38,046 bases of DNA, from positions 1-38,046 of the forward strand of contig CANQVL010000025.1 in the NCBI GenBank assembly GCA_947627285.1, given 5' to 3'. This DNA is from an uncultured Oscillospiraceae bacterium (GTDB lineage Bacteria; Bacillota; Clostridia; Oscillospirales; Oscillospiraceae). This document shows positions 33,350 to 38,046 of this stretch, piece after piece. Under the pieces are notes generated by a model. That model was not told where the DNA came from and did not search any database. It worked only from the letters and a program-made list of their open reading frames with translations. Positions within the stretch are counted from its first letter, which is position 1; each line of letters starts with the position of its first letter. The translations under genes were made by a program, and so were the position numbers.

Positions 33350-34198
33350 ATGGCTGAAAAGTATCAAATAGTGAGGAAAAAGGTGTTGACGCCGGATATT
33401 TCCTTGATTTCGGTTCACGCGCCGCTCATCGCTAAAAAGGCGAGGGCGGGGCAGTTCATCATTCTCCGTGCCACGGACGACGGGGAGAGGATACCCCTGA
33501 CGGTCTCCTCGACACAGGGGGATCTGGTCACGGTGGTATATCAGAAGGTGGGCGACTCCACCATGACGCTGGACGAGATACCCGAGGGCGGATGTCTCTC
33601 CGCCTTTGTGGGACCCTTGGGCGAGCCCACGCCCATCGAGGGCGTGAAACGCGCCGCCGTCGTCGGAGGAGGGCTCGGCTGTGCCATAGCTCTGCCGGTG
33701 GCAAAGGCGCTGCATGACGCCGGGGCGGAGGTTGACCTCATCGGGGGCTTCAGGACGAAGGATATCGTCATTTTGGAGGACGAGATGAGAAGCGCCTGCG
33801 ACGATCTCTATATCTGCACGGACGACGGCTCTTACGGCTACAACGGGTTTACGACCGGGAAGCTGGAGGAGCTGCTGGCGGCGGGGGAGAGCTACGACAG
33901 GGTGTACGCCATTGGGCCTCTGGTGATGATGAAATTTGTGTGTAAGCTCACGGAAAAGTACAACATTCCCACCATAGTCAGCATGAACCCCATTATGATC
34001 GACGGGACGGGGATGTGCGGCTGCTGCCGCGTCACCGTGGACGGACAGGTGAAATTCGCCTGCGTGGACGGACCGGATTTTGACGGGCACAAGATAGACT
34101 TTGACGAGACTATCGCGCGGGCCGCGACGTATAAGGAATTTGAACAGCGCCGCAGGGCGGAGCATAGGTGCAGATTGGAGGGTATGGACAATGGCTGA
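33350..34198 (+). CDS. NfnA-like ferredoxin-NADP+ reductase subunit (FAD/[2Fe-2S])
   Basis: The 282-residue protein is of the PyrK/SudB/NfnA type: an FAD-binding barrel, an NAD-binding fold and a C-terminal iron-sulfur site. FAD-site residues include GQFIILRATDDGERIPLTVSS. The nucleotide fold starts RAAVVGGGLGCAIALPVAKAL. The cluster site is GTGMCGCCRVTVDGQVKFACVDGPDF. ATG 33350 follows AGAGGTG by 6 bases; a GTG at 33341 lies inside the ribosome site. The 8-base overlap with a glutamate-synthase-small-subunit-like gene is the NfnAB arrangement, an NADH-dependent, electron-bifurcating ferredoxin:NADP+ oxidoreductase. Sulfide dehydrogenase is the older name for such pairs. Confidence 0.85.
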   Translation: MAEKYQIVRKKVLTPDISLISVHAPLIAKKARAGQFIILRATDDGERIPLTVSSTQGDLVTVVYQKVGDSTMTLDEIPEGGCLSAFVGPLGEPTPIEGVKRAAVVGGGLGCAIALPVAKALHDAGAEVDLIGGFRTKDIVILEDEMRSACDDLYICTDDGSYGYNGFTTGKLEELLAAGESYDRVYAIGPLVMMKFVCKLTEKYNIPTIVSMNPIMIDGTGMCGCCRVTVDGQVKFACVDGPDFDGHKIDFDETIARAATYKEFEQRRRAEHRCRLEGMDNG

Positions 34199-35573
34199 CA
34201 TGACCCCGGTAAAGACTAAGATGCCCGAGCAGGAGCCGGACGTAAGGAACAGGAATTTTCTCGAGGTGGCGCTGGGCTACACGCCGGAGCTGGCGGCGCG
34301 GGAGGCAAACAGGTGCCTCAGGTGCAAAAATCCCAGGTGCGTCGAGGGTTGTCCCGTGAATGTGCCGATACCGGAGTTCATCGGTAAGGTGCAGGAGGGC
34401 GACATGGAGGGGGCGTACCGCGCCCTCAGCCGCGCCAACGCCCTGCCCGCCGTGTGCGGGCGCGTGTGCCCTCAGGAGAACCAATGTGAGGGCAGGTGCG
34501 TTCGCGGGATCAAGGGCGAGAGCGTGGGCATAGGCCGCCTTGAGCGGTTCGTGGCGGATTGGGCGCTGGAGCACGGCGTTCAGGACGCGCAGACCGCGCC
34601 CTCCAACGGGCATAAGGTCGCCGTCATAGGCTCGGGACCCGCGGGGCTCACCTGCGCCGGGGAGCTTGCGAAGAAGGGCTACGCCGTCACGGTTTTTGAG
34701 GCGTTCCACGTCGCGGGGGGAGTTTTGAGCTACGGGATACCGGAGTTCAGGCTGCCAAAGTCGATAGTTCAAAAGGAGGTCGCCAAGCTCGAAAAGATGG
34801 GCGTGGAGATCCGGCTCAACATGGTCATCGGCAAGGTGCTCTCCATTGACGAGCTGTTTGAGATAGGCTATGAGGCGGTATTCATCGGGTCGGGCGCTGG
34901 GCTTCCTCAGTTTATGAAGATACCCGGAGAGAGCCTTGTGGGGGTGTTCTCCGCAAATGAGTATCTGACGCGCATCAACCTTATGAAGGCGTATGAGCCC
35001 GACAGCGCGACGCCGATTTTTGAGAGCAGGAGGGTCGCCGTCCTGGGCGGCGGAAACGTGGCGATGGACGCGGCAAGGTGCGCCAAGCGCATGGGCGCGG
35101 AGGTGCATATCGTATACAGGCGCGGCGAGGCGGAGCTTCCCGCCCGCGCTGAGGAGGTCCACCACGCGAAGGAGGAGGGCATACAGTTTGACCTTCTCTG
35201 CAACCCCGTGCTCATCGAGGGGGACGAGAGGGGAAGGGTCAAGTCCATGAAATGCGTCCGCATGGAGCTGGGCGAGCCCGACGCCTCCGGCAGAAGGCGC
35301 CCGGTGCCCATCGAGGGCAGTGAGTTTGAGATGGAGGTCGACACGGTAATCGTGGCGATCGGAACAAGCCCCAATCCGCTGATACGCTCCACCACGCCGG
35401 GACTTGACGCCAACAGCCGAGGGTGCATTACCACCGCGCCGGACGGCGCGACATCGCGCGAGGGCGTTTTCGCGGGCGGTGACGCCTCTACGGGCGCCGC
35501 GACGGTGATACTCGCCATGGGCGCGGGGAAGACCGCGGCAAAGAGCATTGATGAGTATTTGATGGGGAAGTGA
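34191..35573 (+). CDS. NfnB-like NADPH oxidoreductase (GltD/GltA-type subunit)
   Basis: The 460-residue flavoprotein resembles the small subunit of glutamate synthase. The N-terminal [4Fe-4S] domain has CLRCKNPRCVEGCPVNVPIPEF and CGRVCPQENQCEGRCVRG. The FAD site is VAVIGSGPAGLTCAGELAKKG and the NADPH site RVAVLGGGNVAMDAARCAKRMGA. The C-terminal FAD loop GVFAGGDASTGAATVILAMGAGKTAAKSIDEYL closes it. No glutamate synthase large subunit is nearby, so an NfnB role with the upstream gene is more likely than ammonia assimilation. GGAGGGT precedes ATG 34191. A weak hairpin (35572-35591) overlaps the stop. Confidence 0.87.
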   Translation: MADMTPVKTKMPEQEPDVRNRNFLEVALGYTPELAAREANRCLRCKNPRCVEGCPVNVPIPEFIGKVQEGDMEGAYRALSRANALPAVCGRVCPQENQCEGRCVRGIKGESVGIGRLERFVADWALEHGVQDAQTAPSNGHKVAVIGSGPAGLTCAGELAKKGYAVTVFEAFHVAGGVLSYGIPEFRLPKSIVQKEVAKLEKMGVEIRLNMVIGKVLSIDELFEIGYEAVFIGSGAGLPQFMKIPGESLVGVFSANEYLTRINLMKAYEPDSATPIFESRRVAVLGGGNVAMDAARCAKRMGAEVHIVYRRGEAELPARAEEVHHAKEEGIQFDLLCNPVLIEGDERGRVKSMKCVRMELGEPDASGRRRPVPIEGSEFEMEVDTVIVAIGTSPNPLIRSTTPGLDANSRGCITTAPDGATSREGVFAGGDASTGAATVILAMGAGKTAAKSIDEYLMGK

Positions 35574-35597: not shown

Positions 35598-35749
35598 GCT
35601 CCTGAGCCGCTGGGCTCTTTATAATGATTCCGCCATTAAATGGCGGGGGATTTTCTTTCCTCTCTTTTGGTTTCGCCAAAAGAGAGGAAAGAAACAAAGG
35701 AGAGAAAAGCGACCAGCGGGGGATTTCGGTTTTCCCCCGCTGGACACCC
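35598..35749 (+). repeat. Left inverted arm of the 628-bp element
   Basis: Hairpins in order: 35604-35617 (5-base stem), 35630-35646 (CCGCCAT/ATGGCGG), 35652-35694 (stem up to 19 bases, loop TTTCG) and 35713-35743 (CCAGCGGGGG/CCCCCGCTGG). It is the inverted partner of 36074-36225. Confidence 0.85.
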
Positions 35750-36073
35750 CTTTTAAAAACGACCACACAGGGGGCCGCGGCCCCCTATGTGGAGAACCCC
35801 CAGTGGGGAGCGTATCGGCAGCAATTGCATAAACACTGTGTAGGAGCTGGGCTGAAAGCTTTTGCCCGATTACCGCCAACAAAGCGCGGCGCAATTAAGG
35901 AGCAGGACACTCCATTGACCGACCACGTTAAGCGGTTAAGCGGGTTCGGAGACTGTGCAATTCGGTTTTGGAACCCGCGCGTCGATTCTTCTGCCCGTGC
36001 GTGAAAGTTTTAGACTGCGGGAGCCGTCGCGAGACTAAACGGCAGGGCGAAACAAGCTTCTGCCGAACCCAAC

Positions 36074-36225
36074 GAGGGTCCAGGGAGGGATGACATCATC
36101 CCTCCCTGGTCGTTTTTCTCCTCTTTGTTACTTTACTCCTCTTTTGGCGAAACCAAAAGAGGAGAAAGTAAATCCCCCGCCATATAATGGCGGAATCATT
36201 ATAAAGAGCCCGGCGGCTCCGGAGC
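36074..36225 (-). repeat. Right inverted arm of the 628-bp element
   Basis: Mirror of the left arm: hairpins at 36206-36219, 36177-36193, 36128-36171 (12 + 7 base stem with one bulged A, loop CGAAA) and 36080-36109 (14-base perfect arms around CA). The stem bases differ from the left arm at several places, but both sides of each stem changed together. Confidence 0.85.
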
Positions 36226-36297: not shown

Positions 36298-37845
36298 ATG
36301 AATAACCAAACCGTGATCGTTCTTGATTTTGGCGGTCAGTACAATCAGCTTATCGCCAGACGTGTGAGGGAAAACAATGTATACTGCGAGGTCATGCCCT
36401 ATACGGCGACGATTGAGGAGCTGAGGGCGAAATCGCCTATTGGGTTTATTTTTACCGGCGGGCCAGGAAGCGTCTATGAGGAGGGGTCGCCACAGGCGGA
36501 CCCGGAGATATTCAGGCTCGGCGTGCCTATTCTCGGCATATGCTACGGCTGTCAGCTTATTGCCCACAACCTGGGCGGGCGGGTGACCATGGCGCAGGAG
36601 GACACGGCGAGAGAATACGGCAAGACCGAGACTTATTACGACACCTCCTGCAAGCTTTTCAAGGGGCTGCCCGACAGGGGGATCAGCTGGATGAGCCACG
36701 GGGATTACATGGAGAAGGTCCCCGAGGGGTTTATGCTTGCCGCCCACTCCGACGCGTGCCCAAACGTGGCGATCTGCGACGAGGGACGGGGATTTTACGG
36801 CGTCCAGTTCCACCCGGAGGTCAACCACACGGAGAACGGCGCCGCCATGCTGAGAAATTTCCTCTATGAGGTCTGCCATGCCAGGGGAGACTGGTCCATG
36901 GGCGACTACAAGGAGACGGCTGTGCGGCAGCTCAGGGATAAGATCGGGGCGGGAAGGGTGCTCCTTGCCCTCTCCGGCGGGGTGGACTCCTCTGTGGCGG
37001 CGGCGCTTCTCGCCGAGGCGGTGGGGAGCCAGCTGACGTGCGTTTTCGTCGATCACGGGCTCATGCGGAAAAACGAGGGGGACGAGGTGGAGCAGGCGTT
37101 CGCAAAGTGGGACCTGAACTTCATTCGTGTCAACGCCGAGGAGCTTTTCCTCTCAAAGCTTGCGGGCGTCAGTGAGCCGGAGCGCAAGAGGAAGATTATC
37201 GGGGAGGAGTTTATTCGCGTTTTTGAGGCGGAGGCGAGGAAAATCGGCTCCGTGGACTACCTGGCGCAGGGGACAATTTATCCCGACGTCATCGAATCAG
37301 GCTCCGGCAAGGCGGGGGCGGCGGTCATAAAGAGCCACCACAACGTGGGGGGACTGCCCGATTACGTGGATTTCAAGGAGATCGTGGAGCCATTGAGGAT
37401 GCTCTTTAAGGACGAGGTGCGCGCGCTGGGCAGGGAGCTGGGGCTTCCGGAATACCTTGTCATGCGCCAGCCATTCCCCGGCCCGGGGCTCGCCATACGG
37501 GTAATCGGCGAGATAACAAAGGAGAAGCTGGACACACTGCGGGAGGCGGATTACATATTCCGGGACGAGGTGGACAGGGCGGGCATCGCACACACAATGA
37601 ACCAGTATTTTGCCGTGCTCACCAACATGCGCAGCGTGGGCGTCATGGGCGACGGCCGCACCTACGACTACACCCTCGCCCTCCGCAGCGTCACCACCAC
37701 CGATTTTATGACCGCCGACTGGACGCGCATACCCTACGACGTCCTCGACAGGATCAGCACCCGCATAGTCAACGAGGTCCCGGGGATAAACAGGATAGTT
37801 TACGACATAACGTCAAAGCCGCCGGCGACGATTGAGTGGGAATAA
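36298..37845 (+). CDS. guaA: GMP synthase (glutamine-hydrolysing)
   Basis: Aminates XMP to GMP using glutamine and ATP. The 515-residue product has the class I glutamine amidotransferase (1-190), with the nucleophile in [15 protein letters not shown] and the His-Glu pair in [10 protein letters not shown]. The ATP pyrophosphatase has [19 protein letters not shown] (about 222-240). The dimerisation domain has [18 protein letters not shown] and the conserved end [21 protein letters not shown] lies 6 bases before ATG 36298. It has its own promoter directly beside the 628-bp element. Its 3' end is a known integration hotspot for genomic islands in other bacteria. Confidence 0.97.
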
Positions 37846-37996: not shown

Positions 37997-38037
37997 AAAA
38001 AGGTCTTGCTGACTTTCACCAGTCGGCAAGACCTTTT
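37997..38037. terminator. Strong bidirectional terminator at the window end
   Basis: AAAAAGGTCTTGC(T)GACT pairs with AGTC(G)GCAAGACCTTTTTT around a 6-base loop, with A-run before and T-run after. It is 150 bases beyond guaA and could also serve a minus-strand gene outside the window. Confidence 0.85.
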
Positions 38038-38046
38038 TTGCTATTT

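What the first reader, a model, noticed from the sequence alone, without database searches (positions are those of the whole stretch)
35598..36225. A 628-bp non-coding element with about 150-bp inverted arms, each made of four ordered hairpins
The two arms align as inverted repeats from the outer GCTCCTGAGCC/GGCTCCGGAGC through four hairpins in the same order and spacing. This is unlike a simple terminator pair or a short REP. Inverted arms this long, with their own internal palindromes, no transposase and a structured centre, suggest a non-autonomous mobile element or a structured RNA/DNA locus that folds either as one giant stem or as eight hairpins. I do not recognise it as a named family.
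Basis: seen in the sequence. Interest (0 to 1): 0.78.

Follow-up and report, generated by a model that had tools for sequence, protein, structure and literature searches.

The report
Hairpin-armed repeat of gene-cassette family
The 628-base piece is a gene-free copy of a DNA repeat family, seen so far almost only in one genus of probably gut-dwelling bacteria, whose paired hairpin arms in sister species enclose small foreign-looking genes; no transposase was found with them, which suggests a gene-shuffling system whose mover is not yet known.

Summary
In detail: 35598-36225 lies between gltA and guaA, its outer 128 bases are the window's only long inverted repeat (89%, E 2e-41), and both arms carry ordered hairpins. 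It belongs to a dispersed family, with matches on 21 of the 95 contigs of its own genome and in 23 of 34 genus genomes. The centre, C, has a conserved core in 21 of 34 genus genomes; a sparser search of 147 genomes of the order found it only in the window's own.

Relatives show a fuller form: arm, C inverted, middle, C, arm. In G022, 21 of 27 neighbouring C pairs have this order. Twelve of 21 middles examined held likely genes, most often GNAT acetyltransferases; cargo GC averages 0.49 against 0.64 in flanking genes. Two junctions occupied in one species are empty in G000 and G005. At shared sites contents differ between species, and two whole elements recur at unrelated loci. The window copy is a cargo-free arm-C-arm form.

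Compensatory changes keep the local hairpins; nothing supports the giant stem. C shows no RNA covariation and is a mosaic shuffled among copies. I found no helper transposase, integron integrase or target duplication. Best reading: non-autonomous, cassette-forming mobile repeat, mover unknown.

The parts
35598..35812 (+). left arm (ARM): five hairpins, ending in the CCACACAGGGGGCC stem
   Evidence: profile match over the whole arm; 44 arms aligned, 16 of 30 predicted pairs show two-sided compensatory change
35598..35617 (+). terminal hairpin GAGCC/GGCTC at the outer end
   Evidence: sequence; by eye, a similar terminal hairpin at outer ends of some G022 elements
35630..35646 (+). hairpin CCGCCATT/AATGGCGG
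   Evidence: sequence
35652..35694 (+). 19-bp hairpin of the arm (TTTCTTTCCTCTCTTTTGG)
   Evidence: 100% complementary; compensatory changes
35713..35743 (+). hairpin CCAGCGGGGG/CCCCCGCTGG
   Evidence: sequence; compensatory changes
35763..35792 (+). hairpin CCACACAGGGGGCC/GGCCCCCTATGTGG
35832..36078 (+). centre module C; genus-wide core at 35863-36025
   Evidence: C by blastn only in G000 and G005; core model in 21 of 34 genus genomes
36076..36225 (-). right arm (ARM, inverted)
36080..36109 (-). hairpin CCAGGGAGGGATGA/TCATCCCTCCCTGG
36128..36171 (-). CTCTTTTGG hairpin of the right arm
36206..36225 (-). terminal hairpin GAGCC/GGCTC and outer end GGAGC
   Evidence: sequence
34101..35573 (+). 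upstream gene, NADPH-dependent glutamate synthase gltA (start uncertain); 24 bases between its stop and the element
   Evidence: TIGR01316, 598 bits against cut-off 472
36298..37845 (+). downstream gene, GMP synthase guaA; 72 bases between the element and its start
   Evidence: NF000848, 773 bits against cut-off 400

Best explanation
The element is a cargo-free member of a non-autonomous mobile repeat family seen so far almost only in one genus related to Oscillospiraceae. The family's building block is an arm of several hairpins followed by a conserved module C. Two such blocks facing each other form an element, either without cargo or around one to three small foreign-looking genes. Shown: multicopy dispersal, inverted pairing, enclosed genes, two empty junctions, shared sites with different contents, conserved arm hairpins, mosaic C copies. 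Inferred: a trans-acting enzyme recognised the hairpin ends and inserted elements mostly just behind stop codons. After insertion, homologous exchange between C and arm copies swaps or deletes the middle, which would give cargo turnover at fixed sites and cargo-free forms such as the window copy.
For: Copies: own genome 75 matches on 21 contigs; 628-base query in 23 of 34 genus genomes (arm matches outside G000 and G005, as listed) and 1 of 26 others; C core 21 of 34 genus genomes. Pairing: 21 of 27 neighbouring C pairs under 2.5 kb in G022 are inverted, gaps 188-2113 bp; in G000 and G005 10 of 13 neighbouring arms face each other, none the other way. Cargo: 20 ORFs picked from 12 of 21 middles: 14 over Pfam cut-off (9 GNAT, 5 other enzymes), 5 under, 1 none, no transposase; 17 cargo ORFs GC 0.49 against 15 flanking stretches 0.64, U = 0. 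Mobility: argC|argJ, 16 bases in G000 and G005, 1006 in G022; an NYN-gene junction short in both, 1012 bases in G012; L312/L317 and L319/L327 are near-copies of whole elements with unmatched flanks. Same site, other content: leuD|leuB in G006 and G022; L173 (arms, no C or gene) against L321 (three genes); L162 (arm-C) against L150 in the own genome, 1.65 kb of GC 0.45 with an HTH-like frame beside C. Hairpins. Exchange.
Against: No target-site duplication recognised on 25 elements by eye. No helper found: Y1 transposases are missing from element-rich G005 and G006 and no arm lies at any of 25 Y1 loci fetched. 20 of 21 G000 loci share at least one flank with G005 element loci, so insertion is slow or finished. 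The one G000/G005 presence-absence case looks like a deletion with a remnant. Facing arms in G000 and G005 enclose only 262-470 bases, too little for such genes. Nine of 21 middles, both G012 ones among them, gave no convincing gene. Cargo could be short residents enclosed by chance insertions of two arms.
Confidence: 0.7

Rival explanations
1. A host-serving noncoding locus: the arms are bidirectional terminators or mRNA 3'-end stabilisers and the centre is an RNA; repeats spread but were kept for RNA function.
For: Hairpins are maintained by compensatory change. Element sides face gene 3' ends in 88 of 117 scored cases (noisy).
Against: C has no compensatory pair in 30-copy and 21-copy alignments. 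No Rfam family at gathering score. Elements sit between arg genes that look like one operon (gene names recalled), where a strong terminator should hurt. It does not explain cargo genes or contents that differ at one site.
Confidence: 0.15
2. Dead recombination debris: several unrelated short palindromic repeat families cluster between genes and the arm-C order is inherited from old duplications, without any mover.
For: Many modules are nested or truncated; other palindromic repeats lie inside middles; rearrangements between the sister genomes have ends at elements.
Against: The strict inverted order, near-copies of whole elements at unrelated loci and empty junctions.
Confidence: 0.12
3. A REPIN/RAYT system: the arms are REP-like hairpins moved by a Y1 (HUH) transposase of the genus. 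It is a special case of the best explanation in its mechanism, so the odds overlap.
For: Hairpin ends in inverted pairs; Y1 genes in 18 of 34 genus genomes, more often in arm-rich ones.
Against: No Y1 in G005 and G006; no arm at any of 25 Y1 loci fetched; two Y1 genes inspected carry a different palindrome inside.
Confidence: 0.08

Closest known systems
Composite non-autonomous transposons built from two miniature elements (TIME-COMP, Pseudomonas; passages of PMC4133298)
   Same: Two copies of a short repeat enclose genes and no gene for transposition; moved in trans; mosaic formation.
   Different: TIMEs are 262 bp with 38-bp Tn3-family ends and make 5-bp target duplications; here no transposon with such ends was found, no duplication was recognised, and the arms are hairpin stacks plus a 160-250-nt module.
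Mobile insertion cassettes (MICs, Bacillus cereus; four passages of PMC6542083; details recalled)
   Same: Genes between terminal repeats, no transposase of their own (recalled).
   Different: MIC231 has the ends of a known IS (recalled); no such IS found here.
BOX elements of Streptococcus pneumoniae (passages of PMC3049150)
   Same: Modular, multicopy, intergenic, strongly folded repeats of narrow taxonomic range with variable inner modules.
   Different: BOX elements range from 67 to 637 bp and have terminal repeats and target duplications; no gene cargo was described in the passages read.
REPINs (start of the abstract of PMC3116915 seen in a listing; details recalled)
   Same: Inverted pairs of palindromic repeats, many copies, spread within the genome (recalled).
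   Different: Unit is far longer, can enclose genes, and shows no RAYT linkage.
Chromosomal integron cassettes (recalled)
   Same: Small genes, rich in GNATs, of foreign composition; structured sites.
   Different: No integron integrase over cut-off in 34 genomes; cassettes are dispersed singly and bounded by inverted pairs.

Membership tests
MITE (miniature inverted-repeat element) | terminal inverted repeats, no transposase, many copies | tested here: met
   628 bases is long for the class (30-300 bp)
MITE (miniature inverted-repeat element) | target-site duplication | tested here: inconclusive
   ends of 25 elements printed, none recognised by eye
MITE (miniature inverted-repeat element) | ends matching an autonomous transposon | tested here: inconclusive
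   none among the cargo ORFs scanned or at 25 Y1 loci; other transposase families were not searched
Mobile insertion cassette / composite MITE | genes enclosed by the repeats, no transposase | tested here: met
   for relatives; not met by the window copy itself
Mobile insertion cassette / composite MITE | movement of the cassette as a unit in trans | not testable with these tools
   only indirect: near-copies at unrelated loci
REPIN/RAYT | linkage to a RAYT (Y1) gene | tested here: not met
   (25 loci, a few kb each)
Integron | IntI integrase | tested here: not met
   0 of 34 genomes over the TIGR02249 cut-off; weaker matches in 33 of 34 and in all 14 controls are not integron-specific
Structured RNA family | conserved fold of the centre with covariation, or Rfam match | tested here: not met
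BOX element | boxA-boxB-boxC sequences | not tested
   no comparison with BOX models was made

The most novel reading that the evidence does not exclude
A gene-capture system unlike the described ones: hairpin-stack arms plus module C act as paired recognition sites for an unidentified enzyme working on folded single-stranded DNA, picking up small foreign genes and parking them behind stop codons. Homologous exchange between C copies then shuffles cargo among fixed chromosomal sites, doing the job of a dispersed integron without an integrase. The mosaic variation of C, which has nearly erased its orthology signal, would be its footprint.
Probability: 0.25. Interest if true: 0.85.

Novelty: new variant of a known kind. 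Interest (0 to 1): 0.62.

Why it matters
Transposase-free gene cassettes are known as cases tied to known insertion sequences or transposons (recalled; for one). Here many genomes of one genus carry the family, one of them with about twenty facing pairs, some round enzymes of foreign composition, at sites whose content differs between species. If confirmed, it is a route of gene gain that annotation can miss, because the arms are non-coding and match nothing in Rfam at gathering score. It also offers a natural test of how short repeats exchange sequence: C has nearly lost its orthology signal between species whose flanks are about 95% identical.

Tried and rejected
Riboswitch or known RNA: Rfam gathering scan of the window 0 hits; permissive scan of the element gave 49 hits, all below gathering scores. 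C as an RNA: RNAalifold 39 pairs, 0 with two-sided change; cross-species 5 pairs, 0. Giant stem: not supported (in 3 of 6 genomes the same-element score was slightly higher, in 3 lower). RAYT. Integron. Phage or plasmid carriage: no blastn match, two short patterns 0 hits in viral contigs. Clean empty site between G000 and G005 for L144: it turned out to be a remnant. A tally of gene orientation used longest open frames and contains errors: the window's left side was scored as facing a start because an antisense frame is longer than gltA; the count is kept as printed. Papers: searches (listings and starts of abstracts) showed no description of this family; the library lacks most subscription journals.

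Selection to bear in mind: the loci of other genomes were partly chosen because arms were already seen in facing pairs, so the 13 facing pairs counted for them are not independent; the G000/G005 and G022 counts are. Cargo ORFs were picked by eye: 20 from 12 of the 21 middles printed there, nearly all from G022. Of the 20, 17 entered the GC test (three given as letters were left out; one was started later in frame). The empty junctions turned up by chance among loci fetched for other elements; no systematic search for empty sites was made.

Full report
What is in the window. 35598-36225 lies between gltA (stop at 35573) and guaA (start at 36298); both genes were named by NCBIfam models. The element's outer 128 bases form an inverted repeat at 89% identity, the only long one in the window (ungapped core 87 nt at 93%). 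Each arm is a row of hairpins, and about 250 bases of centre lie between them. Nothing in Rfam reaches its gathering score in the window.

It is a repeat family. In its own genome G000 (2.8 Mb, 95 contigs) there are 75 matches on 21 contigs. Among 60 genomes examined, 23 of 34 of the genus match the 628-base query and 1 of 26 outside it, the latter at E 1e-3. A sister species, G005, has 83 matches. Of 21 G000 element loci, 20 share at least one flank with a G005 element locus, mostly at 92-97%, so most copies predate that split. Copies are modular: left arm, centre C, and a right end that is either the inverted arm or another arm type; C also occurs in tandem with a period of about 356 bases.

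What the arms are. In an alignment of 44 arms from the window's genome and its relatives, RNAalifold predicts 30 pairs in three hairpins, and 16 of the 30 have sequences in which both sides changed and the pair survived. Among 21 elements in 6 genomes, the two arms of one element are no more alike than arms of different elements of the same genome. Selection, or the copying mechanism, therefore seems to keep the local hairpins, not the long stem.

What the centre is. Thirty C copies from G000 and G005 share 102 invariant columns of 241 but give no compensatory pair. In 12 orthologue comparisons C is 74-85% identical, barely above the 80% mean of all cross-species pairs, although the flanks are about 95% identical. 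In eight clean orthologue pairs, 309 of 336 differences are between states that both occur in other copies. Correlation between variable columns falls from r2 0.40 at 1 nt to about 0.05 beyond 20 nt; the shuffled level is 0.036. The simplest reading is exchange between copies. Assembly error is an unlikely source, because the exchange scale is shorter than usual assembly words (recalled), but these are draft genomes.

The centre's core is genus-wide. Plain blastn finds C only in G000 and G005, but a sequence model of its core finds it in 21 of 34 genus genomes, with 86 matches in G022 and 76 in G012; the number of candidates scored was capped at 86. A wider listing gave 90 in G022. In G025, G026, G028 and G023 the matches are weak and short. 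In 147 genomes drawn from the order, two of them in this genus, only the own genome matched, under stricter filters and with 20 candidates scored each.

The larger form. At loci of G012, G022 and G006 the order is arm, C inverted, middle, C, arm inverted. In G022, 21 of 27 neighbouring C pairs under 2.5 kb have this order, with gaps of 188-2113 bp; the other three orders have two each. A further palindromic border was picked up by a loose pattern at a near-fixed distance inside C on most of 20 middles.

Cargo. Of 21 middles examined for ORFs, 12 gave ORFs worth testing; nine, both G012 ones among them, gave none that convinced me. Of the 20 ORFs scanned, 9 are GNAT acetyltransferases over the Pfam cut-off and 2 more are weak GNAT matches. 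One each matches the metallo-beta-lactamase superfamily, Methyltransf_11, His_Phos_1, HIT and Flavin_Reduct over cut-off. Pyrophosphatase, TfoX_N and DUF998 matches are below cut-off, and one ORF has no match. No transposase or recombinase appears. GC of 17 cargo ORFs averages 0.49 against 0.64 for 15 flanking stretches, with no overlap in rank. In the window's own genome, L150 shows 1.65 kb of GC 0.45 sequence beside C, in place of the left arm that the G005 counterpart L162 has; it holds three short frames, one with weak helix-turn-helix matches below cut-off.

Signs of movement. Between argC and argJ (names recalled from sequence), G000 and G005 have 16 bases between stop and start; G022 has 1006, filled by an element. 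At the junction before an NYN-type gene (name recalled), G000 and G005 have only a short spacer, while G012 has 1012 bases with an element. At leuD|leuB (names recalled), G006 and G022 have the same flanks but a pyrophosphatase-like gene in one and a short membrane-protein-like frame in the other. At another site G005 has arms without C or gene, and G022 a three-gene element. Elements L312/L317 and L319/L327 are 87-89% copies of each other over more than 1 kb with flanks that do not match.

Results against. No target duplication was recognised. No helper was found: Y1 transposases occur in 18 of 34 genus genomes but not in G005 or G006, and never next to an arm in 25 loci fetched; other transposase families were not searched for. 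No integron integrase exceeds the cut-off in 34 genomes. The only clear G000/G005 presence-absence case is better read as a deletion. The gene-orientation tally (88 of 117 sides face a 3' end) is noisy.

Verdict. The window copy is an ordinary, cargo-free member of an unusual family. In mechanism it works most like composite non-autonomous elements such as TIME-COMP. Membership in any named family is not shown, since no autonomous partner or target duplication was found.

Noticed in passing
L250:1690-2340 and L253:1800-2420: Two Y1 (RAYT-like) genes carry inside them a different palindrome (in L253 GTAGGGGTCGCC..GGCGACCC), which suggests that this other repeat, not the arms, belongs to the RAYT.
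   Followed up: no
L166:6207-6391: Another repeat of about 185 bp with more than 20 matches in G000.
   Followed up: no
L166 against G000:C21:22047-42013; L145/L146 against L164/L170: Rearrangements between the sister genomes have their ends at these elements.
   Followed up: partly
L142:7399-8497: Tandem array of C with an extra spacer module, period about 356 bp.
   Followed up: partly
L150:1850-3742 (G000:C41): In the own genome, 1.65 kb of low-GC sequence with three short frames stands beside C where the sister species has the left arm: a candidate cargo in G000 itself.
   Followed up: partly
L348, L351, L352 (G026, G028): Compact forms: a roughly 130-nt C-like core next to a CTCTC..GAGAG hairpin, with a GCGCGGTG/CACCGCGC closing stem by eye in L348; could be the minimal ancestral unit.
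   Followed up: no
window 37997-38038: Another short palindrome after guaA, possibly a terminator.
   Followed up: no
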